From: Ornithinibacillus sp. 4-3
GTDB lineage: Bacteria > Bacillota > Bacilli > Bacillales > Amphibacillaceae
Length of the DNA: 64,000 bases
Reading direction: 5' to 3'
Assembly (NCBI RefSeq): GCF_040958695.1
Contig: NZ_CP162599.1
Span: 468,001-532,000, forward strand
Position 1 is the stretch's first letter; every line of letters begins with the position of its first letter. The notes under the pieces are model-generated. The model saw only the letters and a program-made list of their open reading frames with translations, did no database searches and was not told where the DNA came from. The translations under genes were made by a program, and so were the position numbers. Below are positions 43,357 to 54,131 of the stretch, piece after piece.

Positions 43357-43952
43357 TGGATAAACAAAGATGCAGTTGGGTATCAGAAGAAGAGATTTAT
43401 CTAAAATATCATGATGAAGAATGGGGACCACCCCCAACAAAAGGGCATGTTATTCCAATTCATGATGAAAACTATTTATTTGAAATGCTTTGCTTAGAAG
43501 GAGCGCAAGCAGGGCTAAGCTGGATAACCATATTAAAGAGGCGTGAAAATTATCGTGAAGCTTTTGATTATTTTAATCCACGTAAAGTAGCCTACTACAA
43601 TGAGGAAAAAGTGGAAGAGCTCTTGAAAAACAAAGGCATCATCCGCAACAAACTAAAGATCCGCTCTGTTATTAAAAATGCTAAAGCCTTTTTACAGGTT
43701 CAGGAGGAATTCGGTTCCTTTCAAAATTATATGTGGCAATTTACGGATGGTAAGCAAATTGTAAACGATTGGAAAAGCCATGCAGAAGTGCCAGCATCAA
43801 CCAAGGAATCAGAAGCAATGAGTAAAGATTTAAAAAAACGAGGATTTTCCTTTGTTGGTCCAGTTATTTGTTATTCCTTTATGCAAGCGGTTGGTATGGT
43901 GAATGATCATATGCAGGATTGTTTCTTGTATGCTGGGAAGGTGGAAGAGTAG
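43356..43952 (+). CDS. tag: DNA-3-methyladenine glycosylase I
   Basis: A 198-residue base-excision repair enzyme. RCSWVSEEEIYLKYHDEEWG (zinc Cys, active-site Tyr/Trp), LFEMLCLEGAQAGLSWITILKRRENYREAF and the C-terminal MQAVGMVNDHMQDC (zinc ligands) are diagnostic. Translationally coupled to the sulfurtransferase. A terminator follows. Confidence 0.95.
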   Translation: MDKQRCSWVSEEEIYLKYHDEEWGPPPTKGHVIPIHDENYLFEMLCLEGAQAGLSWITILKRRENYREAFDYFNPRKVAYYNEEKVEELLKNKGIIRNKLKIRSVIKNAKAFLQVQEEFGSFQNYMWQFTDGKQIVNDWKSHAEVPASTKESEAMSKDLKKRGFSFVGPVICYSFMQAVGMVNDHMQDCFLYAGKVEE

Positions 43953-43959
43953 AGAAGGA

Positions 43960-43984
43960 GAGTCGACGGGGGCGGCTCTTTTTG
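43960..43984 (+). terminator. Terminator after tag
   Basis: GAGTCG (43960-43965) pairs with CGGCTC (43973-43978), followed by TTTTT. It insulates the CRISPR locus from upstream transcription. Confidence 0.7.
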
Positions 43985-44020
43985 GCGACTAGGTATAATG
44001 AATCGTTCTTGTGAATGAAA

Positions 44021-44050
44021 TTGACAAACACCTTTATACAAAATTAAAAT
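44021..44050 (+). promoter_or_regulatory. Promoter of the crRNA-like RNA upstream of cas3
   Basis: TTGACA (44021-44026), an 18-base spacer and TAAAAT (44045-44050). Transcription would start near 44057, only a few bases before the repeat-like element. Confidence 0.65.
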
Positions 44051-44060
44051 GTAAGAGTAG

Positions 44061-44150
44061 GTGTCTTCTTCGATGAGGAGAAGTGGATTGAAATGTATTG
44101 AATGTAATGTTTATACAAGTCTAATTGTAATTTTAATATTACAATTAGAC
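44061..44150 (+). ncRNA. Putative crRNA-like autoregulator of the type I-C operon (CreR-like)
   Basis: A solitary CRISPR-repeat-like unit (44061-44094) folds into a 7-bp stem with a 4-base loop (TCTTCTTCGATGAGGAGA) and ends TGGATTGAAAT. That is the 11-base 5' handle form of I-C crRNAs. Array repeats end TGGATCTAAAT. The guide begins at 44095 with GTATTGAATGTAATG. The same 15 bases, except position 6, occur at 44165-44179 behind a TTC PAM at the cas promoter. A perfect 13-bp hairpin (44119-44131/44138-44150) ends the unit. Processing and function are inferred. No Cre toxin ORF is visible. Confidence 0.75.
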
Positions 44151-44161
44151 CTACTAATATT

Positions 44162-44217
44162 TTCGTATTAAATGTAATGAATGTTATTGACATTCTTTTC
44201 CTTTGTGGTACTATAAG
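44162..44217 (+). promoter_or_regulatory. cas operon promoter overlapped by a TTC-flanked protospacer-like site
   Basis: TTC PAM (44162-44164), matching site from 44165, -35 TTGACA (44187-44192), then TACTAT (44209-44214, 16-base spacer) or TATAAG (44212-44217). A full-length I-C effector footprint starting at 44165 would cover the -35 box. cas3 begins 36 bases downstream of the -10. Confidence 0.75.
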
Positions 44218-44252
44218 ATTAATGAATTTTCTGAAAAGGAGGGAAAATCAAA

Positions 44253-46646
44253 ATGTTAGTTGCACATATACGAGAAAAAGATTATGAAAGACAATTAGTC
44301 ACCGAACACTTGAAAGCGGTTTCGAAATTAGGTAGAGAATATGGCCAACCATTAGGTATGGGTGCTCTTGTTGAACTTAGTGGGTTGTTACATGACATGG
44401 GGAAATTAACTAAGAAGTTTACGGAATATTTGGAATCCGTTGTGATTGGCAAGCAAAAAGTAAAAACTAAAATAAATCATTCTAGTGCTGGAGCAGTTTT
44501 TTTGTACAAGAATTTCTATAATACAAATCTAGTCACAGAAAATGATTTCTTTCAAAATATGGCGATAGAAATTATTTGTATGAATATTTTATCACATCAT
44601 GCTGGTTTATACGACTTTTTGACTATGGACAGAACGACATCTGATTTTATTCGTAGGGTTTCACAAGAGGATTTACCTAATTATGAAGAAGTTTTACAGG
44701 AATGGAAAAGAACTGGATTAGATATAAAGGTTGAAGGTTTAGTTAAAGAGGCTGGATTAGAAGTGAAGCAAATCATAGAAAGCATCCAAGGAGACGAAGA
44801 ACATAAGAAGTTTTCGTTGATTTATTTTAGTTTTATTCAGAAGCTATCTTTTAGTTGTTTAATTGATGCAGATAGAACGGATACTCGCAGATTTGAAGAG
44901 GATGATCAAAGTCCTCTTCAACACAACAGCAAAGAAATTTTTGAGAAGGCATATTCCAACATCATGCAACAAATTAAAGAGTGGAATATTGCACCTGAAA
45001 ATATGTCAAAATTAAATCGTTTAAGATCCATGATGTCTGATAAATGTGATGAAGTTGCTGGAAAAGAATCAGGAATTTATAAATTATCGATTCCAACTGG
45101 TGGGGGTAAAACATTTGCGAGTCTAAGATATGCTTTAAAGCATGCTATCAAACATAATAAAAAGCGAATTATTTATATTGTTCCATATACAACCATTTTA
45201 GAGCAAAATGCTCAGGAAGTAAGAAGATTTTTTGATGATGAGCCCCATGTATTAGAACATCATGCAAATATAATTGATGATCAGTCATTAGATCATTATA
45301 GCGATTATTATGAGATGCCTAACCATAAAAAACTGCAATTAGGAAGAGATAATTGGGATCATCCAGTGATCTTCACTACTATGGTTCAATATTTGGACAC
45401 TTTTTTCGCAAAAGGAACACGTAAATCAAGGAGATTACACAATTTAACAGATGCAGTTATTGTTATTGATGAGGTGCAAACTGTCCCAGTTAAGCATTTA
45501 GATTTGTTTAACTCAACTGTTAACTTTTTAACGAAAATAGGAAAAAGTAGTGTTTTATTATGTACTGCTACACAACCAGCAGTAGAATATATGAAATATC
45601 CTATTCTCTTAAATGATGATGCAGAAATGATTGATAACTTACCTCAGGTTGCAAAAGAATTTGAAAGAGTAAAGTTTCATAACTATGTGACTAGAGCTGG
45701 TTGGTCAACAGAACAATTAAGTGATTTTATTATAGAAAAAACAATAAAACATCGAACTATATTAATTATTTTAAATACTAAAAGAGCTGTGCTTGACTTA
45801 TACCAATCACTAAAAAACCTCGAGAGTCACCATATTTTTCATCTAAGTACCTCCATGTGCCCAGCTCACCGAAAAGAAAAACTAAGAGAAATTAAAGAAA
45901 AATTGAATAATCAGCCTGTAATTTGCATTTCTACCCAACTGATAGAAGCAGGTGTGGATATCAGTTTTGAAGCGGTTATTCGTTCGTTAGCGGGTTTAGA
46001 TTCGATAGCGCAAGCGGCAGGGCGGTGTAACCGTGAGGGAGAAGCAGAATTTGGTGATGTCTATTTAGTGAAGTCTGCAGTAGAATCATTAACACATTTA
46101 AAAGAAATAAAAGTTGGTATTAAAACAGTGCTTGATTATGTATTGACAGAGAACAATCATATAGAAAATTTATTAAGCCCAGAGATGATTGAACGATATT
46201 TTTACTATTATTATAGTTTTTTTAAAAACAATAATTTTGTACCTAAAAACTTAGAAAGACAATTGATTGAACATTTGAATAATCCGAGTAGGTTTTATGG
46301 AGAAACGAAAACAGTCATGCAAACTATGTACCGAACAGTAGAACAAAATTTTCAAGCAATTGAACAATCCAGTAAAGCAATTATTGTTCCGCATGGTGCT
46401 CGAGGGAAAGAGTTGATTGTAGATTTAAATGAGGAACAATCTCTTGAAAAATTAAATCAATTAATGAAGGAAGCGCAACAGTATGTAGTAAATATTTTTG
46501 ATTATCAATTACAGGTGTTAGCCCAAGCAGGGCATCTTGATACATTGTATAACGACACATTATACGTTCTTCATGAAGATGCTTATACGGAAGAATATGG
46601 ACTATCTGTTTTTGGAGAAGGAGTACTGGGAGATTTAATTATGTAA
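44253..46646 (+). CDS. cas3: CRISPR-associated nuclease-helicase Cas3 (type I-C)
   Basis: A 797-residue protein that degrades DNA marked by Cascade. The N-terminal HD nuclease has H47-D48 in LLHDMGK and the second metal histidines in ILSHHAGLYDF. The SF2 helicase has Walker A PTGGGKT (about 281-287), motif II DEVQ (406-409), motif III LCTATQP and motif VI QAAGRCNREGE. RBS AAAAGGAGGG sits ahead of the ATG. First gene of the operon; its promoter is the proposed target of the crRNA-like RNA. Confidence 0.96.
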   Translation: MLVAHIREKDYERQLVTEHLKAVSKLGREYGQPLGMGALVELSGLLHDMGKLTKKFTEYLESVVIGKQKVKTKINHSSAGAVFLYKNFYNTNLVTENDFFQNMAIEIICMNILSHHAGLYDFLTMDRTTSDFIRRVSQEDLPNYEEVLQEWKRTGLDIKVEGLVKEAGLEVKQIIESIQGDEEHKKFSLIYFSFIQKLSFSCLIDADRTDTRRFEEDDQSPLQHNSKEIFEKAYSNIMQQIKEWNIAPENMSKLNRLRSMMSDKCDEVAGKESGIYKLSIPTGGGKTFASLRYALKHAIKHNKKRIIYIVPYTTILEQNAQEVRRFFDDEPHVLEHHANIIDDQSLDHYSDYYEMPNHKKLQLGRDNWDHPVIFTTMVQYLDTFFAKGTRKSRRLHNLTDAVIVIDEVQTVPVKHLDLFNSTVNFLTKIGKSSVLLCTATQPAVEYMKYPILLNDDAEMIDNLPQVAKEFERVKFHNYVTRAGWSTEQLSDFIIEKTIKHRTILIILNTKRAVLDLYQSLKNLESHHIFHLSTSMCPAHRKEKLREIKEKLNNQPVICISTQLIEAGVDISFEAVIRSLAGLDSIAQAAGRCNREGEAEFGDVYLVKSAVESLTHLKEIKVGIKTVLDYVLTENNHIENLLSPEMIERYFYYYYSFFKNNNFVPKNLERQLIEHLNNPSRFYGETKTVMQTMYRTVEQNFQAIEQSSKAIIVPHGARGKELIVDLNEEQSLEKLNQLMKEAQQYVVNIFDYQLQVLAQAGHLDTLYNDTLYVLHEDAYTEEYGLSVFGEGVLGDLIM

Positions 46647-46663
46647 AAAAGGTGAGGAGATAT

Positions 46664-47389
46664 ATGAGAAATCAAATTGAATTTGTTGTATATGGAAAGT
46701 ATGCATTGTTTACAGATCCAGTAACACGCATAGGCGGTGAAAAATTCAGCTATCAAATCCCGACATATCAGGCACTAAAAGGAATTGTAGAGTCGATTTA
46801 TTGGAAGCCATCGATTAATTGGATAATCGACCAAGTACGTGTAATAAATCCGATTCAAATGGAAGTAAAGAGCATGAGGCCGATGAAATACCAAGATCAT
46901 AAAAATGAATTAGCTTATTATACTTACTTACGCAATCCGAAATACCAAGTGCGAGCACACTTCGGATTTAATAAAAATAGACCAGATTTAAAACATGATT
47001 GGAATGAAAATAAACATCATAATATTGCGAAACGGTCTGTTGAAAGAGGAGGTCGTAGAGATATTTTCTTGGGTTCAAGAGAATGCCAAGGATATGTAGA
47101 AGCCTGTGATTTTGAATCAGGTATTGGTGTTTATAAGGAATCAGGAGATATTTCTTTTGGGAGAATGTTTCATGGTTTTACTTATCCGGATGAAAGTGGT
47201 GGTGACGATTTAGAAGCCCGTTTTTGGATTCCTGAAATGAAAAATGGTGTGATTGACTTTATTCCTCCTGAAGAATGTCCAATGGTTCGTAGCGTGAAAA
47301 AATACAACCAGAAGAAGTTTGAAATTGGAGTTAATATGAACTCTGTTGATAATGAACACAAAGAAATCTTCGGAGAGGAGGACATCTGA
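46664..47389 (+). CDS. cas5c: Cas5c (Cas5d) crRNA endonuclease and Cascade subunit
   Basis: A 241-residue RAMP protein. In type I-C, where Cas6 is absent, this subunit cuts the repeat and holds the 5' handle. It begins MRNQIEFVVYGKYALFTDPVTRIGGEKFSY with GFN/RAMP features. The region AFHFGFNKNRPDLKH-like to KHHNIAKRS contributes the active-site area by homology. ATG 46664 was preferred to GTG 46652, which overlaps the RBS GGTGAGGAG. It shares TGATG with cas8c. Confidence 0.94.
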   Translation: MRNQIEFVVYGKYALFTDPVTRIGGEKFSYQIPTYQALKGIVESIYWKPSINWIIDQVRVINPIQMEVKSMRPMKYQDHKNELAYYTYLRNPKYQVRAHFGFNKNRPDLKHDWNENKHHNIAKRSVERGGRRDIFLGSRECQGYVEACDFESGIGVYKESGDISFGRMFHGFTYPDESGGDDLEARFWIPEMKNGVIDFIPPEECPMVRSVKKYNQKKFEIGVNMNSVDNEHKEIFGEEDI

Positions 47390-49344
47390 TGAGCTGGATG
47401 CAAAGATTGGTAGACATTTATGATAAAAATTCCCATATGGTAGGAGTATTTGAACAACAAGGGACTCGTAAGATTACGTTAATGCCCATTTCGCATATCG
47501 CACAAAATGCACAAATTGAAATGATATTGGATAGAAACGGTAATTTTCATCGTGCGGAGGTTATTCCAAAAGAAGAAGCTGCTACTATCGTGCCTGCGAC
47601 CTTAGATTCTGCAAATAGAGCAGGTTCAAAAATAGCTCCACATTACGTTCACGATAAGCTTTTCTATGTTGCTAAAGACTATCAAAAATATGGTACAAAC
47701 GAGAAGCGTTACAAAAATTTTGATGCTTATGAAGCGCAAATGAAAGAATGGTTAGAAGCTTCAGGGGTGCCTACTTCTGTAAAAATAATAACATCTTATA
47801 TTCAAAAAGGAACATTAATTCAGGATTTGATTAATGAAGGAATTATTTTTACTGATGACAGTGGGAATGTTATAGAGACTTGGTCAAATAGTGATAGTGA
47901 AAAACATGGAATTGATAAACCAGATATTTATAAAGTGACAACTGGAACAGTGTTTGATGCTTTTGTTCGATTTGATGTATTGAAAGAAAGCCCTGACGAA
48001 AAAAACTTCTGGGAAAACAAAGAAGCTTTTGACGCTTATATACATTATCTAGAGCAATTGATGGATATGGACACAGAAAAATATCTAAAAGGTATCTGTG
48101 ATGTTACTGGAGAAGAGGGTGTAATTACAACTCAACATGGCTCTAAGTTACGCCATGCTGGGGATCAATCAAAAATAATATCTTCTAATGATTCTAGTGG
48201 ATATACATATCGTGGAAGATTTAAAGAGCCAACAGAAGTAGTGCAAATTGGATATAAGGCTTCCCAAAAGGCACATCAAGCGCTCAGGTGGTTAAACCAA
48301 AAACAAGCCATTCATGTTGATACTCGTTATTTCTTAACGTTTGGTACAAAGACTATTGATGTACCTCAAGTTCATGATGGTACTTTAGATTATTTTAAAA
48401 GAGAATTCATGAATATCGATCAAAACCCAGTAGAAGTAGCTGATACGGAGGAGATATTCGCTAAACAAGTAAATCGAGCCATATTAGGAATGAAGCATAA
48501 TTTTGAAAATTCCGATAAAGGAAAAGAGGATATTATTCATCTCGCTTTAGATGCAGCAACATCTGGGAGATTAGCTATTGTTTATTACCAAGAGCAAGAA
48601 CCTGATATATTTTTAGGTAATTTAAAGTTTTGGCATGATACATGTTCTTGGAGACTTATGTATCGTGATCCAGATACTAAGCGGTTTGGAAGATATATCG
48701 GAACACCATCAACTTTTGCAATTGCTAAAGCCGTTTATGGAGAACGGGCAAATCCAGCAGTAAAAAAGGAATTTTATACGCGTATATTGCCTTGTATTAC
48801 AGAGAAAAGACCTGTCCCAAAAGATGTTATAAGGAGTATTTATCAACGGGTGATACGTCCAGAGTCTTTTAAAGATACGATGGAATCATGGGAGCAAACA
48901 CTAAATATAGCTTGCGCATTAATTAAAAAAAATTATCAAAAGGAGGTACCTTCAATGGCATTACAAAAAGATAGTAAAGATATTGATTATCTGTTTGGAC
49001 GTCTATTAGGTGTGGCAGAAGTTATGGAACGAACAGTATTGAACGATTATTATAAGGAAGAATCACGACCAACAAATGCTACTCGGTATTTTAATGTATT
49101 TGCTAATCGTCCAGGAAGAACATGGGATATTATTAGAAAGCAATTAAATCCATATATTCAACGATTGCAAAGAAGTAAAAAAACGCATTTTATCAAACAA
49201 ATTCAGGAAATTGAAGATACGATTGGTATGGAAATAGCTAGAAATAAAAAACTGAGCCCAGTATTTCTAGCTGGTTATAGCAGCCAAGTTCAAGAATTAT
49301 ATAAGAAAAATAAGGAGGAGAAAAAGAATGACATTACAAAATAA
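47389..49344 (+). CDS. cas8c: Cas8c (Csd1), large subunit of the type I-C effector
   Basis: A 651-residue Cascade large subunit that recognises the PAM and recruits Cas3. Csd1 features: MSWMQRLVDIYDKNSHMVG start, the YLKGICDVTGEEGVITTQHGSKLRHAGDQSK block, FLTFGTKTIDVPQVHDG and AKAVYGERANPAVKKEFYTRILPCI. Translation is coupled to cas5c. The last 129 codons also form a separate gene, cas11c, from an internal start. It overlaps cas7 by 17 bases. Confidence 0.95.
   Translation: MSWMQRLVDIYDKNSHMVGVFEQQGTRKITLMPISHIAQNAQIEMILDRNGNFHRAEVIPKEEAATIVPATLDSANRAGSKIAPHYVHDKLFYVAKDYQKYGTNEKRYKNFDAYEAQMKEWLEASGVPTSVKIITSYIQKGTLIQDLINEGIIFTDDSGNVIETWSNSDSEKHGIDKPDIYKVTTGTVFDAFVRFDVLKESPDEKNFWENKEAFDAYIHYLEQLMDMDTEKYLKGICDVTGEEGVITTQHGSKLRHAGDQSKIISSNDSSGYTYRGRFKEPTEVVQIGYKASQKAHQALRWLNQKQAIHVDTRYFLTFGTKTIDVPQVHDGTLDYFKREFMNIDQNPVEVADTEEIFAKQVNRAILGMKHNFENSDKGKEDIIHLALDAATSGRLAIVYYQEQEPDIFLGNLKFWHDTCSWRLMYRDPDTKRFGRYIGTPSTFAIAKAVYGERANPAVKKEFYTRILPCITEKRPVPKDVIRSIYQRVIRPESFKDTMESWEQTLNIACALIKKNYQKEVPSMALQKDSKDIDYLFGRLLGVAEVMERTVLNDYYKEESRPTNATRYFNVFANRPGRTWDIIRKQLNPYIQRLQRSKKTHFIKQIQEIEDTIGMEIARNKKLSPVFLAGYSSQVQELYKKNKEEKKNDITK
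48955..49344 (+). CDS. cas11c: Cas11c small subunit from internal start within cas8c
   Basis: An ideal Shine-Dalgarno AAAAGGAGG (48938-48946) lies inside cas8c, 8 bases before an in-frame ATG (codon 523). The product would be 129 residues, MALQKDSKDIDYLFGRLLGV to the Cas8c C-terminus, all helical. Type I-C systems are known to make the Cas11 small subunit this way; two copies line the belly of the complex. Nothing else in the locus encodes a small subunit. Confidence 0.88.
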   Translation: MALQKDSKDIDYLFGRLLGVAEVMERTVLNDYYKEESRPTNATRYFNVFANRPGRTWDIIRKQLNPYIQRLQRSKKTHFIKQIQEIEDTIGMEIARNKKLSPVFLAGYSSQVQELYKKNKEEKKNDITK

Positions 49345-50194
49345 GATTGATTTTGCTGTAGTATTTACAGTAGATAAAGCCAATCCCAATGGAGATCCAT
49401 TGAATGGAAACCGCCCTCGTCAAGATTATGAAGGACATGGAGAAGTTTCTGATGTAGCGATAAAAAGGAAAATCAGAAATCGTTTATTAGATGAAGGAGA
49501 ATCTATTTTTGTACAATCTGATGAGAAAAGAAATGATGAATATAGAAGCTTGAAAGATAGAGCTGATTCTATAGATGAGTTGAAGAAAATATTAAATAAT
49601 GCTAAGGGGGATGAAGACTTAGCTACAAAAATTGCAACAGAAAATTGGTATGATGTTCGAGCGTTTGGACAGGTATTTGCATTTAAAAATACAAAGATGG
49701 CTATAGGAATTCGGGGACCGGTGTCGATTCATACAGCAACAAGTATTGAACCAGTTGATATTACGAGCATGCAAATTACTAAGAGCGTAAATTCTACAAC
49801 GAATACAACAAGTCCAGGACAGAAAACTTCCGATACAATGGGAATGAAACATCGTGTGGATTTCGGAGTATATAAATTTTATGGAAGTATTAATCCCCAA
49901 CTTGCTGAAAAAACAGGATTTACAAAAGAAGATGCTGAAAAGTTAAAACAAGCACTTATTTCGTTATTTGCAAACGATGCATCTTCAGCGAGACCAGATG
50001 GTTCCATGGAAGTGAATAAGGTTATTTGGTGGGAACATAATTCCAAGCTAGGTCAATATTCCTCGGCAAAGGTGCACCGTTCTTTAACAGTCAAACGCAA
50101 GACAGAAGAAGTTGCTACTTCATTTGAAGAAGACTATGAAGTTAAAGTGACACCTTTAGAAAATCTAGAGTTTGAAATATATGATGGACTCTAA
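49328..50194 (+). CDS. cas7c: Cas7c (Csd2), Cascade backbone subunit
   Basis: A 288-residue RAMP protein that polymerises along the crRNA. Family marks: VFTVDKANPNGDPLNGNRPRQ, AIKRKIRNRLLDEG, NWYDVRAFGQVFAFK, GIRGPVSIHTATSIEPVDI and MGMKHRVDFGVYKFYGSINPQ. RBS AAGGAGGAGAAAAAG lies within the cas8c end. The stop overlaps the start of cas4. Confidence 0.96.
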   Translation: MTLQNKIDFAVVFTVDKANPNGDPLNGNRPRQDYEGHGEVSDVAIKRKIRNRLLDEGESIFVQSDEKRNDEYRSLKDRADSIDELKKILNNAKGDEDLATKIATENWYDVRAFGQVFAFKNTKMAIGIRGPVSIHTATSIEPVDITSMQITKSVNSTTNTTSPGQKTSDTMGMKHRVDFGVYKFYGSINPQLAEKTGFTKEDAEKLKQALISLFANDASSARPDGSMEVNKVIWWEHNSKLGQYSSAKVHRSLTVKRKTEEVATSFEEDYEVKVTPLENLEFEIYDGL

Positions 50195-50837
50195 CCAACA
50201 TTCATTTATGATCTCAGGCATACAACATTTTGAATTTTGTCCGAGACAATGGGCTTTAATCCATATTGAACAAGCTTGGGAAGAAAATGTGTTAACTGTT
50301 GAAGGTAACCTATTACATTCTAAAGTTGATGATCCTTTTATTCGCGAAAAAAGAGGAGATATTTTATTTGTAAGAGCTCTCAAAGTGCATTCTACATCAT
50401 TGCCTATTCATGGGGTCTGTGACATGGTTGAATTTCATTATGATAAGAATGGAATTACTTTGTATGGAGAAGAAGGAAAATATAAAGTTTTACCAGTTGA
50501 GTATAAACGAGGAAAACCAAAGAGGCATCAAGCGGATATTTTGCAGACAACCGCTCAAGTAATTTGTTTAGAGGAAATGTTCCAGACCACAATAGAAGAA
50601 GTCGCTTTTTACTATCATGAGATTCGTCACAGAGATAATATTATTATCACAAAGGAACATAGAGAAAAAGTAATCAAAATGATAGAGCAAATGAAAAACT
50701 ATTATGCGCGACGCCATACACCTAAAGTAAAAACAGGAAAACATTGTAAGCAATGCTCTTTAAACAACATATGTTTACCAGAATTGTTAAATAAAGAGAC
50801 TGCCATGTCATATGTGCAGAGGATGTTAAAAGAATGA
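50181..50837 (+). CDS. cas4: Cas4 adaptation nuclease
   Basis: A 218-residue RecB-like nuclease with an iron-sulfur cluster that trims prespacers and selects the PAM. The first cluster Cys is C20 in FEFCPRQW; the other three lie in CKQCSLNNIC near residues 188-198. Nuclease motifs GVCDMVEF and LPVEYKRGKPKR are intact. ATG 50181 (or 50184) overlaps the cas7 end. A TTG at 50172 is less likely. It overlaps cas1 by four bases. Confidence 0.92.
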   Translation: MMDSNQHSFMISGIQHFEFCPRQWALIHIEQAWEENVLTVEGNLLHSKVDDPFIREKRGDILFVRALKVHSTSLPIHGVCDMVEFHYDKNGITLYGEEGKYKVLPVEYKRGKPKRHQADILQTTAQVICLEEMFQTTIEEVAFYYHEIRHRDNIIITKEHREKVIKMIEQMKNYYARRHTPKVKTGKHCKQCSLNNICLPELLNKETAMSYVQRMLKE

Positions 50838-51868
50838 AAAAATTATTAAACGTACTATATGTTACTATTCCAAATAGCTATTTGGCTTTAAAAGGTGAGA
50901 ATATTAATGTGTTACAAGAAGGAAATTCAATAGGGCGTGTACCATTACATAATTTAGAGGGGATTTGTGCTTTTGGTTATCAAGGAGTTAGTCCAGCATT
51001 GATGGAGAAATGTGTAAATGATGGTATTGGACTTGTTTTTTTCACTAAACAAGGAAGATTTCAAGCAAAAGTTAGTGGCCCTGTAAATGGTAATGTTACA
51101 CTGAGAAAAACACAATATCGCTATTCTGATGATGAAGATAAAAGTTTAGAAATAGCTAAAATGATGATTTTAGGAAAAGTTTATAATGCAAGAAAGAATA
51201 TGGAGAGATTAAAAAGAGACCATGCACTTCGGATTAACTATGATAATATTGGTAGCACGATTGAACGTTTAAAAGTATTAGAACAGGATGTTCTGTATCA
51301 TACCAATGACTTAGAATCTTTAAGAGGATTTGAAGGACAAGCTGCAACGATTTATTTTAGTCAATGGAATGAATGGATTTTAAATCAAAAAGAGGCTTTC
51401 TTTTATAGAGAACGTACTAGAAGACCTCCATTAGATCCTCTAAATGCATTACTTTCTTTTGCATATACTTTGTTGACAAGAGAATGTGCATCAGCTTTGG
51501 AAGGAGTAGGACTAGATTCATATGTCGGATTCCTACATCGTGACCGTCCAGGAAGAGTGTCTTTGGCGTTGGATTTAATGGAAGAATTGAGACCAGTATT
51601 AGCTGATCGCTTTGTAATTAAACTGATTAATCAGAAGCAAATAAAGAAAAATGATTTTCATGTACAAGAAAATAGTGCAGTTATATTGAAAGAAGATGCG
51701 CTAAAAAAATTCATTAAATATTGGCAAGAAGAAAAAGAGAAGACGGTACAACATCCATTTTTAAAACTTAAAGTAAAAAAAGGATTATTACCTCATGTAC
51801 AATCATTGCTATTAGCGAGATTTTTACGTGGAGATTTAGATACATATCCACCTTATCTTATGAGATAG
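50834..51868 (+). CDS. cas1: Cas1 spacer integrase (type I-C)
   Basis: A 344-residue integrase with N-terminal beta domain (LLNVLYVTIPNSYLALKGENINV) and helical catalytic domain. The metal-binding residues lie in ECASALEGVGLDSYVGFLHRDRPGRVSLALDLMEE (Glu, His and Asp). Translation is coupled to cas4 through ATGA. Confidence 0.96.
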   Translation: MKKLLNVLYVTIPNSYLALKGENINVLQEGNSIGRVPLHNLEGICAFGYQGVSPALMEKCVNDGIGLVFFTKQGRFQAKVSGPVNGNVTLRKTQYRYSDDEDKSLEIAKMMILGKVYNARKNMERLKRDHALRINYDNIGSTIERLKVLEQDVLYHTNDLESLRGFEGQAATIYFSQWNEWILNQKEAFFYRERTRRPPLDPLNALLSFAYTLLTRECASALEGVGLDSYVGFLHRDRPGRVSLALDLMEELRPVLADRFVIKLINQKQIKKNDFHVQENSAVILKEDALKKFIKYWQEEKEKTVQHPFLKLKVKKGLLPHVQSLLLARFLRGDLDTYPPYLMR

Positions 51869-51880
51869 GAGGGAAGTGAT

Positions 51881-52171
51881 TTGTTAATACTTGTAACATA
51901 TGATGTATCTATAGAAACCGATGGTGGGAAGAAGCGATTAAGAAAGGTTGCCAAGATTTGTGAAGATTATGGAATACGTGTGCAAAATTCTGTGTTCGAA
52001 TGTAACATTGACTCTGCACAATATGTAATGTTGAAAAATAAACTATCGGAAATCATTAACTTTAGCCATGATAGTTTACGTTTCTATAGATTAGGAGAAA
52101 ATTATAAAACAAAAGTAGAACATCTTGGAGCAAATGATTCAATTGTTGTTGATGAACCTCTGATTTTTTAA
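51881..52171 (+). CDS. cas2: Cas2
   Basis: A 96-residue ferredoxin-fold partner of Cas1. It begins LILVTYDVSIETDGGKKRLRKVAKICEDYG, typical of I-C Cas2, and has VQNSVFECNID. It starts at TTG with AGGAGGGAAGTGAT upstream. No closer ATG exists in frame. Confidence 0.95.
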   Translation: MLILVTYDVSIETDGGKKRLRKVAKICEDYGIRVQNSVFECNIDSAQYVMLKNKLSEIINFSHDSLRFYRLGENYKTKVEHLGANDSIVVDEPLIF

Positions 52172-52328
52172 TGCGAATGTAGAGTGCACATGAAAACCCT
52201 ATGAGGTTCGCGCAAAAAAAACAAGGTTTTTTATAACAAAATGTTTGTTTTTTACATGTTTTCAATCTTTTAATGTGACTTTTCTCTCAAAAAACTAATA
52301 AAAAGGTACTTTTTGAGGGAAAATCGCT
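52172..52328 (+). promoter_or_regulatory. CRISPR leader
   Basis: The 157-base AT-rich stretch between cas2 and the first repeat. It carries GGTTCGCGC, long A and T runs and, next to repeat 1, an inverted repeat CTCAAAAA (52286-52293)/TTTTTGAG (52310-52317). It should hold the array promoter and the Cas1-Cas2 docking site. Confidence 0.8.
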
Positions 52329-53162
52329 GTCGCACTCTTTATGAGTGCGTGGATCTAAATTACAATACTAATCGTTTCATAGATTATTAATAAACCGTCG
52401 CACTCTTTATGAGTGCGTGGATCTAAATTCCGGGAACCCCGTTGAGTTATTATCTCGAATAAACGTCGCACTCTTTATGAGTGCGTGGATCTAAATAACA
52501 GAACCATAAGTACTTGTCGCAAGTTTAGGGTCGCACTCTTTATGAGTGCGTGGATCTAAATATACGTTCAATAGCAACCTTTTTAGGCATTAATCGTCGC
52601 ACTCTTTATGAGTGCGTGGATCTAAATGATGTTACAAACATTTCCTAGTGAAGATGGATTACGTCGCACTCTTTATGAGTGCGTGGATCTAAATTCCGCT
52701 CGTCTCCGTAGGAAGCTTGGCTTCTAAGGTCGCACTCTTTATGAGTGCGTGGATCTAAATAAAGAGACCAACACTAGCTAGACCACTTATAGCACCGTCG
52801 CACTCTTTATGAGTGCGTGGATCTAAATTTGTGAAGTCATATCTGGTGTAATTAATGTTTTTGTCGCACTCTTTATGAGTGCGTGGATCTAAATAACAAA
52901 CGCAAAGCTTAGCAGATCAAGTTGATAAATGTCGCACTCTTTATGAGTGCGTGGATCTAAATCTACAAGTTTGGTAAAGAGGTGAAAATATGAATGAGTC
53001 GCACTCTTTATGAGTGCGTGGATCTAAATCGCAGACTGCCGGAACGGGAAACCAACAAACCCCGTCGCACTCTTTATGAGTGCGTGGATCTAAATATCGG
53101 TACAAATTAATGTTACCCCTTTATTCAATCGTCGCACTCTTTATGAGTGCGTGGATCTAAAT
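52329..53162 (+). CRISPR. Type I-C CRISPR array, 13 repeats and 12 spacers
   Basis: Thirteen identical 32-base repeats begin GTCGCACTC and end GGATCTAAAT. The stem is CGCACTC/GAGTGCG with loop TTTAT. Repeats start at 52329, 52397, 52465, 52530, 52596, 52663, 52729, 52797, 52863, 52931, 52998, 53064 and 53131. Spacers are 33 to 36 bases and all differ. Direction follows the leader and cas2. The handle differs from the common I-C form GGATTGAAAT at two bases. No spacer was seen to match another part of this window. Confidence 0.98.
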
Positions 53163-53165
53163 CTA

Positions 53166-53192
53166 CTGTCGATATATCAGCTATATCGACAG
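53166..53192. other. Hairpin directly after the CRISPR array
   Basis: CTGTCGATATA and TATATCGACAG form a perfect 11-bp stem around TCAGC, three bases past the last repeat. T-rich sequence begins some 30 bases later, so termination of the array transcript is possible but not by the standard form. Confidence 0.55.
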
Positions 53193-53306
53193 CAACTATT
53201 TCATTACTTGATTAATATTTTCTTTTTTTATCTCGATACCTTTAATCCCCAAAATCCCCCCAAACTATGCTAAAATAATCTAACAATTAGGAAGGGAAGC
53301 GATGAA

Positions 53307-54131
53307 TTGGATTATGTAGTATTAAATAATGGATTGCGTATGCCAAAGCTTGGTTATGGAGTTTGGCGTGTGCCGAATGAAGAAGTAACGGTTGCAGTGA
53401 AAAATGCAATAGATGTTGGGTATCGTTCGATAGATACAGCTAAAGTGTATAAGAATGAGCGTGGAGTAGGACAAGCGATTACTGAGAGTGATGTGCCGCG
53501 CGAAGAGTTATTTATTACGACGAAGGTTTGGAATGCAGATCATGGTTATGAAGAAGCGTTACAAGCTTATGAGCGCAGTTTGACAGAGCTTGGTTTAGAT
53601 TATGTGGATTTATATCTGATTCATTGGCCAACACCAATGTACGATAATTATATTGAAACATATAAAGCGCTTGAGAAATTGTATAAAGATGGTCGTGTAA
53701 AAGCAATTGGTGTTAGTAATTTCCAAATCGATCATCTTGAGCGTGTATTGAAGGAATGTGAAATTGTTCCGGCAGTGAATCAAGTTGAGTGCCATCCTTA
53801 TTATCAGCAAGAAGAACTGAAGGAGTTTTGTAAAGCTAATAATATCTATTTAGAGGCATATAGTCCATTGCAGCATGGTGGAGAGCTTTTAGCAGATCCG
53901 GTTGTTACAGAAATTGCTGCAAAATATGGAAAGACATCGGCGCAAGTAGCGTTGCGTTGGCATTTGCAGTCTGATACCATCATCATTCCGAAGACAGTAA
54001 CTGTATCCCGTATGAAAGAAAACCTAGATGTGTTTGATTTTGAATTGTCTACGGAAGATATGGAAAAGATGAAAGAGTTAAATCGTAATGAACGCGTTAA
54101 CCAAGATCCGAATAAAATGGATTTAAGATAA
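53307..54131 (+). CDS. Aldo/keto reductase (YvgN/YtbE-like)
   Basis: A 274-residue NADPH-dependent reductase of aldehydes such as methylglyoxal. The catalytic tetrad is D43, Y48, K73 and H106 in SIDTAKVYKNE, TTKVWN and LIHWPTP. NQVECHPYYQQ and the C-terminal IIPKTVTVSRMKENL bind the cofactor. It starts at TTG 53307 after GGAAGGGAAG. An ATG five bases earlier is out of frame and stops after five codons. Confidence 0.9.
   Translation: MDYVVLNNGLRMPKLGYGVWRVPNEEVTVAVKNAIDVGYRSIDTAKVYKNERGVGQAITESDVPREELFITTKVWNADHGYEEALQAYERSLTELGLDYVDLYLIHWPTPMYDNYIETYKALEKLYKDGRVKAIGVSNFQIDHLERVLKECEIVPAVNQVECHPYYQQEELKEFCKANNIYLEAYSPLQHGGELLADPVVTEIAAKYGKTSAQVALRWHLQSDTIIIPKTVTVSRMKENLDVFDFELSTEDMEKMKELNRNERVNQDPNKMDLR

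What the first reader, a model, noticed from the sequence alone, without database searches (positions are those of the whole stretch)
44021..44217. crRNA-like RNA that appears to target the promoter of its own type I-C cas operon
Seen: a lone repeat-like hairpin (44061-44094) ending TGGATTGAAAT; directly after it the guide GTATTGAATGTAATG; 70 bases downstream the same word with one change (A for G at position 6) at 44165-44179, preceded by TTC and abutting the cas3 -35 box. Known: type I-C uses a TTC PAM 5' of the protospacer; type I guides do not pair at position 6; short seed matches let Cascade bind without cutting; CreA/CreR RNAs do this in other type I systems. Inference: this RNA guides the I-C effector to silence cas expression, relieved when Cascade is occupied or lost. 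Matches stop after position 15, as expected for repression without cleavage.
Basis: partly seen in the sequence, partly recalled or inferred. Interest (0 to 1): 0.95.

Follow-up and report, generated by a model that had tools for sequence, protein, structure and literature searches.

The report
Self-silencing guide RNA of CRISPR type I-C
Beside its CRISPR genes this bacterium carries a lone CRISPR-repeat-like element followed by a short guide that matches a site just in front of those same genes, so its own CRISPR complex is predicted to settle there and turn CRISPR expression down; the same arrangement, with different guides and correspondingly different sites, recurs in dozens of related bacteria.

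Summary
Upstream of a complete type I-C cas operon sits a lone repeat mimic (7-bp stem, 5-nt loop, 11-nt handle, as in the array repeats) behind a promoter-like site. The next 15 bases recur 70 bp downstream after a TTC PAM, with one mismatch at position 6; the predicted cas3 -35 box lies inside the expected footprint. None of 20,000 shuffled guides did as well, and PAM plus seed occurs once in the 3.7-Mb genome. Among 154 distinct I-C loci, 62 lone mini-repeats (window included) have such a target. Over 56 distinct guide/target pairs, mismatches fall at positions 6 (43) and 12 (35), with 27 of 784 at the other fourteen; sought without a PAM rule, the best sites carried TTC in 57 of 57. This is the signature of type I Cascade reading its own cas promoter: a CreR-like autorepressor in subtype I-C. 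Guide and site covary between lineages, not for orthologues of this exact element, which its nearest cas3 relatives lack. Transcription, Cas5c processing and repression are inferred. The mechanism is known (CreR in I-B, I-E, V-A); whether the I-C version is in print could not be checked.

The parts
44021..44050 (+). promoter-like site of the guide RNA (TTGACA, 18 nt, TAAAAT)
   Evidence: 11 of 12 consensus matches; transcription not shown
44057..44154 (+). predicted guide RNA; its ends GTAGGT 44057-44062 and ACCTAC 44149-44154 can pair
   Evidence: fold of 44057-44155, z -4.8, no shuffle of 200 as stable; ends inferred
44065..44083 (+). repeat-mimic hairpin, 7-bp stem and 5-nt loop
44084..44094 (+). 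11-nt handle TGGATTGAAAT; expected Cas5c cut before 44084
   Evidence: cut inferred from known I-C processing (recalled)
44095..44118 (+). guide region up to the next hairpin; positions 1-15 (44095-44109) match the target except position 6
   Evidence: 3' limit inferred
44119..44150 (+). 13-bp hairpin closing the element, no T-run behind it
   Evidence: z -7.4 for 44118-44155; no terminator call
44162..44164 (+). PAM TTC
44165..44199 (+). target: matched part 44165-44179; full-length footprint to about 44199 covers the -35 box
   Evidence: footprint length inferred
44187..44214 (+). predicted cas operon promoter (TTGACA, 16 nt, TACTAT)
   Evidence: 10 of 12 consensus matches
44253..52171 (+). 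type I-C operon cas3-cas5c-cas8c-cas7c-cas4-cas1-cas2, predicted to be repressed as one unit
   Evidence: NCBIfam models above curated cut-offs for all seven; neighbouring genes overlap or lie within 12 bases of each other
52329..53183 (+). CRISPR array, 13 repeats GTCGCACTCTTTATGAGTGCGTGGATCTAAAT (first to last member of the repeat family, spacer part included)

Best explanation
The locus carries a lone I-C repeat mimic followed by a guide that matches a TTC-flanked site in the predicted cas promoter, and the RNA it would give (a CreR) likely leads the strain's own type I-C Cascade to that site, where it would block transcription of the cas operon without cutting. Steps: (1) transcription from 44021-44050 (inferred from the promoter-like site); (2) Cas5c cuts at the base of the hairpin, leaving the 11-nt handle (inferred from the identical repeat plan and a Cas5c close to the solved B. 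halodurans protein); (3) the guide fills Cascade (inferred); (4) Cascade pairs at positions 1-5 and 7-15 behind TTC (the match is shown, binding is inferred); (5) the match ends at position 15 and the guide is only about 24 nt, so Cas3 is not triggered (inferred from published short-guide work in a I-B system); (6) the bound complex covers the -35 box and lowers all seven cas genes, its own parts included: negative feedback, expected to be relieved when array crRNAs compete for Cascade or an anti-CRISPR disables it (inferred from published CreR work).
For: Window: 14 of 14 scored positions; best of 20,000 shuffled guides 12; a single TTC-plus-seed site in the genome; repeat plan 7/5/11 as in the array. 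Relatives, 105 loci with the window: 48 lone mini-repeats with a 9-10 of 10 handle, in 48 loci; 43 of 48 have a TTC target with at least 12 of 16 matches; guides with shuffled letters reach 12 or more of 14 in 25 of 4,800 trials and 13 in 1. Replication on 49 further named loci: 28 mini-repeats in 24 loci, 19 of 28 with such a target. Pooled, 56 distinct pairs with 50 distinct guides, mismatches by position 1-16: 0,0,0,0,0,43,0,1,5,2,2,35,2,6,1,8. Without any PAM rule, the best match, where it reaches 13 of 14 (57 of 76 mini-repeats), follows TTC in 57 of 57, at a background of 2.3%. Predicted -35 box 10-25 nt into the protospacer in 29 of 46 cas-strand targets with a strong promoter match, against 13% of 741 random anchors. 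Shuffled regions with a seed-perfect pair: 0 of 307. Cas5c matches the solved B. halodurans protein BH0337, E 4.8e-87. Published: in H. hubeiense CreA bases 1-5 and 7-11 are needed but not 6 or 12, PAM TTC (PMC8501985, passages); a single repeat with one spacer gave knockdown similar to repeat-spacer-repeat with I-C Cascade lacking Cas3, and a TTC site overlapping a promoter was used (PMC10865793, passages); guides of 21-24 nt repress strongly and 24 nt or shorter were judged safe from cutting in a I-B system (PMC10989794, passages).
Against: No transcript, processing or repression data. The window's nearest cas3 relatives L028-L034 and L081, and L139, show no such pair in up to 1.2 kb upstream, so covariation is shown for analogous elements, not for orthologues of this one. 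Its same-strand position just upstream of cas3 is not shared: of the 62 mini-repeats with a target, 55 lie antisense in the cas3-cas5 gap and 7 upstream of cas3, of which only the window's is on the cas strand. Loci with a cas3-cas5 gap under 100 bases yield a seed-perfect pair in only 7 of 68, those with a longer gap in 51 of 82. 5 of 48 and 9 of 28 lone mini-repeats had no target with 12 of 16 matches. Swapping guides between loci gave at least 12 of 14 in 414 of 2,256 trials, because related loci share similar guides, so the loci are not independent (15 guide clusters in the first set). 17 of 46 strong promoter matches did not have the -35 box 10-25 nt into the target. In the other classes of the phylum 1 of 26 loci examined showed a pair. 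In the I-B study a 16-nt spacer left 67% of target mRNA, i.e. weak repression (PMC10989794), though CreA works with an 11-base seed. The array handle of this strain differs from the guide RNA's handle at two bases.
Confidence: 0.9

Rival explanations
1. A degenerate leftover repeat with a chance or duplication-derived similarity to the promoter, without function.
For: Lone repeats without a target occur: 14 of 76 mini-repeats. The regions are AT-rich, which raises chance similarity. The nearest cas3 relatives lack the element.
Against: Shuffled guides and shuffled regions almost never reproduce it (25 of 4,800 at 12 or more of 14; 0 of 307; 0 of 20,000 above 12 for the window). A duplication would not place mismatches at positions 6 and 12 in different guides nor require TTC.
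Confidence: 0.05
2. A CreA-like antitoxin guide of a CreTA or CrePA module: the RNA holds down a toxin, not the cas genes.
For: Same guide logic (seed 1-5 and 7-11, TTC) as CreA (PMC8501985).
Against: The target lies in front of cas3, with cas3 the first listed open frame behind it (frames under 80 aa were not listed there), and the genome has no second TTC-plus-seed site. A very small RNA toxin between 44215 and 44252 is not excluded by these calls but has little room.
Confidence: 0.03
3. A solitary-repeat anti-CRISPR RNA (Racr) or decoy that soaks up Cas5c/Cas7c without targeting the promoter.
For: A lone repeat behind a promoter is how Racrs look, and a I-C Racr has been tested (PMC10651486, passages).
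Against: Racrs are described from viral genomes; this element sits beside the cas genes and its guide matches the cas promoter with the right PAM and mismatch position; 61 further loci with their own matching guides would be unexplained.
Confidence: 0.02

Closest known systems
CreR, Cas-regulating RNAs (Liu et al. 2023, Cell Host Microbe, doi 10.1016/j.chom.2023.08.005; paper not held, known here from passages of reviews PMC13131331, PMC12737573 and PMC12948488)
   Same: A crRNA-like RNA with partial match to the cas promoter, effector used as repressor, feedback on cas expression.
   Different: Reported for I-B, I-E and V-A (PMC13131331); [quoted passage not shown] Here subtype I-C, which has no Cas6 and uses Cas5c, one repeat only, and in most positive relatives an antisense place in the cas3-cas5 gap.
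Standalone repeats and mini-arrays (Shmakov et al. 2023, NAR gkad495; cited in PMC10651486, not held; content recalled)
   Same: As recalled: lone repeats in many CRISPR-cas loci, mostly type I, with guides partly matching cas promoters.
   Different: Cannot say whether I-C elements, and these in particular, are listed there.
CreA of CreTA (PMC8501985, passages; PMC9458426, passages)
   Same: Seed 1-5 and 7-11, positions 6 and 12 free, TTC PAM, degenerate repeats.
   Different: CreA represses a toxin; here the target stands before cas3. CreA studied there is type I-B with Cas6 and mostly two pseudo-repeats.
Long-form tracrRNA of Cas9 (PMC8730458, passage)
   Same: The effector is guided to its own cas promoter and represses without cutting.
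   Different: Type II, other RNA architecture and effector.

Membership tests
CreR | crRNA-like element (repeat mimic and guide) outside the array, beside cas genes | tested here: met
[quoted passage not shown]
   14 of 15 behind TTC; -35 box in the footprint; TTC as I-C PAM in PMC10865793
CreR | RNA is transcribed and processed by the Cas nuclease | not testable with these tools
   promoter-like site and repeat plan only
CreR | Cas-dependent repression of the cas promoter, relieved by competing crRNA or anti-CRISPR | not testable with these tools
   needs experiment
CreTA / CrePA | target promoter drives a toxin | tested here: not met
   cas3 is the first listed open frame (80 aa or more) behind the target; one TTC-plus-seed site in the genome
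Racr | solitary repeat in a viral genome, not associated with cas genes | tested here: not met
   158 bases from guide start to cas3 start, within a cas locus
type I-C CRISPR-Cas | Cas5c, Cas8c, Cas7c, Cas3, Cas4, Cas1c and Cas2 present and uninterrupted | tested here: met
   open frames

The most novel reading that the evidence does not exclude
A large and so far uncharted class of single-repeat CreR RNAs autoregulates type I-C CRISPR across Bacilli. It sits wherever the Cascade operon's promoter sits (antisense in the cas3-cas5 gap, or upstream of cas3), has changed its guide many times together with the promoter, and records in natural sequence which guide bases type I-C Cascade does not read (6 and 12). 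The window shows a same-strand form closed by a long hairpin.
Probability: 0.5. Interest if true: 0.82.

Novelty: new member of a known kind. Interest (0 to 1): 0.72.

Why it matters
Type I-C is one of the commonest subtypes and has a minimal Cascade (PMC7684278, abstract start). If it governs its own expression by a guide RNA, its cas genes would sense both crRNA load and anti-CRISPRs. That would affect how I-C strains answer phages and how I-C tools behave when moved without this element. The 56 distinct natural guide/target pairs are also a ready data set of what partial match may give binding without cutting, and a simple sequence test for finding such regulators elsewhere.

Tried and rejected
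Rfam search of 43900-53400 up to E 1: nothing. The search for related loci with cas3: no relative confirmed; repeated with a cas7c alignment: 80 loci. The first scan of relatives overlooked that genome-search loci are not turned to the match strand; that is how the antisense elements in the cas3-cas5 gap came to light, and later scans turn the loci. Pairs with any handle were sought upstream of cas3 in L028-L034, L081, L132, L139, L136 and L137, with the window as control: none in L028-L034, L081 and L139; one each in L136, L137 and the window; the 18 hits in L132 look like a tandem repeat (only four were printed). Chance, leftover repeat, CreTA and Racr readings were rejected as given under rivals. 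Terminators: none called at the window element; in L013 the only call lies within the repeat hairpin on the other strand, and a hairpin with a T-run behind the guide that I see by eye was not called. A text search in PMC11417383 gave no passage.

Rows dropped before counts: the 5 weakest match rows, the 15 weakest; only the 30 best rows were looked at (26 new loci), so most of its rows, all below them, were not. Of the 80 loci, one (L170) lacked a usable cas3-cas5 pair and 30 duplicated loci already held; itself was capped at the best 80 of 549. Some loci end at contig ends (L107, L108, L114, L123 among them) or hold runs of N, so misses there mean little. The 49 new named loci include two that are not Bacilli by name (L194, L202). 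One search left four self-matches in; one search replaces its PAM count.

Not checked: Liu 2023 and Shmakov 2023 are not held (for the latter; the former was not looked up by id, its title search showed only reviews), and supplementary files could not be read. The searches listed no paper whose title or shown abstract tells of a CreR in I-C, which is no proof of absence.

Full report
The observation. The window holds a full type I-C operon, cas3-cas5c-cas8c-cas7c-cas4-cas1-cas2 (44253-52171; all seven above NCBIfam cut-offs; open frames), followed by an array of 13 repeats. Upstream of cas3 lies one repeat mimic: stem CTTCTTC/GGAGAAG, loop GATGA, handle TGGATTGAAAT (44065-44094), with the same 7-bp, 5-nt, 11-nt plan as the array repeat. 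A promoter-like site TTGACA-18-TAAAAT precedes it. The guide GTATTGAATGTAATG (44095-44109) recurs at 44165-44179 behind TTC with one difference at position 6. The predicted cas3 -35 box starts 22 bases into this protospacer.

Chance. With TTC required and position 6 left out, the guide scores 14 of 14; 20,000 shuffles of it score 12 at most (6 times). TTC plus the seed occurs once in the genome, here; the reversed pattern does not occur. In the 64-kb window a 10/10 handle behind a perfect stem of 6 or more is found once.

Relatives. Cas3 searches (E 1e-60) found matches in 26 of 159 genomes of the family, 51 of 397 of the order and 52 of 398 of the class, the own genome included each time. 105 distinct loci were scanned, the window included (weaker rows dropped as told under Tried and rejected). 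Mini-repeats were picked by handle and hairpin and by being single in the locus, without looking at targets; at a handle of 8 or more of 10 there are 85 in 63 loci. With a handle of 9-10 there are 48, in 48 of 105 loci. Of these, 43 of 48 have a TTC site in the same region with at least 12 of 16 matches. In those 43 the mismatches are at position 6 in 34, at position 12 in 27, and at the other fourteen positions together 18 of 602. The misses are L043, L044, L085, L117 and L126. Shuffled guides reach 12 or more of 14 in 25 of 4,800 and 13 in 1. Guides swapped between loci reach 12 or more in 414 of 2,256, since kin share guides: the 43 form 15 guide clusters.

Replication. Of 80 named loci, 49 were new and usable. 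They hold 28 mini-repeats in 24 loci; 19 of 28 have a target of at least 12 of 16, with mismatches at position 6 in 15, position 12 in 12, and elsewhere 9 of 266. Pooled, there are 62 pairs, 56 distinct, with 50 distinct guides: position 6 differs in 43, position 12 in 35, the other fourteen in 27 of 784, and positions 1-5 and 7 never. So where two guides differ at positions 1-5 or 7, each target follows its own guide; at position 6 this is so in 4% of comparisons and at 12 in 12%. Dropping the PAM rule and taking the best match where it reaches 13 of 14, the preceding triplet is TTC in 57 of 57, from 76 mini-repeats (one search had left four self-matches in, so one search replaces it), at a background of 2.3%.

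Pairing at 1-5 and 7-11 with 6 and 12 free and TTC in front is the rule found by mutation for Cascade-guided repression by CreA (PMC8501985, passages). No ordinary promoter motif, duplication or RNA-RNA pairing that I know of predicts it. The site lies so that the predicted -35 box falls 10-25 nt into the protospacer in 29 of 46 cas-strand sites with a strong promoter match, against 13% of 741 random anchors in the same regions; 17 of 46 do not fit.

Place of the element. Of the 62 positive elements 55 are antisense in the gap between cas3 and cas5, and 7 lie upstream of cas3: the window, L101 and L131, L136, L137, L182 and L183. Of these 7 only the window's is on the cas strand. In the relaxed scan 53 of 59 targets are on the cas strand. 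With relaxed rules and a perfect seed: 51 of 82 loci with a gap of at least 100 bases, 7 of 68 with a shorter gap, and 1 of 4 with unknown gap; 0 of 307 shuffled regions. I read this as the element going with the promoter of the Cascade genes. In the window that promoter would serve cas3 and everything behind it.

What is not shown. No expression data exist here. The nearest cas3 relatives (L028-L034, L081) and L139 gave no pair, so there is no covariation test on orthologues of this very element. Its RNA ends are predicted: the 13-bp hairpin at 44119-44150 (z -7.4) and a 6-bp pairing of the ends would close it, and there is no terminator call. The repeat-mimic hairpin alone is not unusually stable (z -1.4). 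In other classes of the phylum 1 of 26 loci examined had a pair (L226, mismatches at 6 and 10).

Mechanism. The most likely course is: transcript, Cas5c cut, Cascade loading, seed-limited binding at the cas promoter, repression without cutting. Supporting published points: a single repeat with one spacer gave knockdown like the full unit with I-C Cascade lacking Cas3, and a TTC site overlapping a promoter was used (PMC10865793, passages); guides of 21-24 nt repress strongly in a I-B system and 24 nt or shorter were judged safe from cutting, while a 16-nt spacer repressed only weakly there (PMC10989794, passages); the I-C handle is held by conserved Cas5c residues (PMC7684278, passages). This strain's Cas5c is close to the solved B. 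halodurans protein.

Novelty. CreR RNAs are reported for I-B, I-E and V-A (PMC13131331, passage; Liu 2023 itself not held). Shmakov 2023, which I recall as a wide survey of standalone repeats, is not held. My searches listed no paper that tells, in title or shown abstract, of a CreR in I-C. I therefore file it as a new member of a known kind, with the subtype, the single-repeat design and the natural 6/12 record as its own features.

Noticed in passing
52329-53183: All 13 array repeats of this strain carry the handle TGGATCTAAAT, two bases away from the TGGATTGAAAT that prevails in the relatives' arrays printed, while the lone guide RNA keeps the common form.
   Followed up: no
L050 and L051, cas3-cas5 gap: Two candidate TTC sites for one guide in each locus, perhaps double binding sites.
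   Followed up: partly
L044, L085 and L117, cas3-cas5 gap: Clear mini-repeats whose guides have no site of 12 of 16 nearby: the target may be elsewhere, weaker or lost.
   Followed up: no
L086, about 1330 bases upstream of cas3: A mini-repeat and a matching TTC site (mismatches at 6 and 12) far from cas3; it may control another gene.
   Followed up: no
L132 (Metalysinibacillus jejuensis), about 340 bases and less upstream of cas3: The word TATGCAGGTAA recurs at steps of 41 bases directly upstream of the I-C operon.
   Followed up: no
L226 (same phylum, other class): One mini-repeat and target pair upstream of cas3, 14 of 16, mismatches at 6 and 10.
   Followed up: partly
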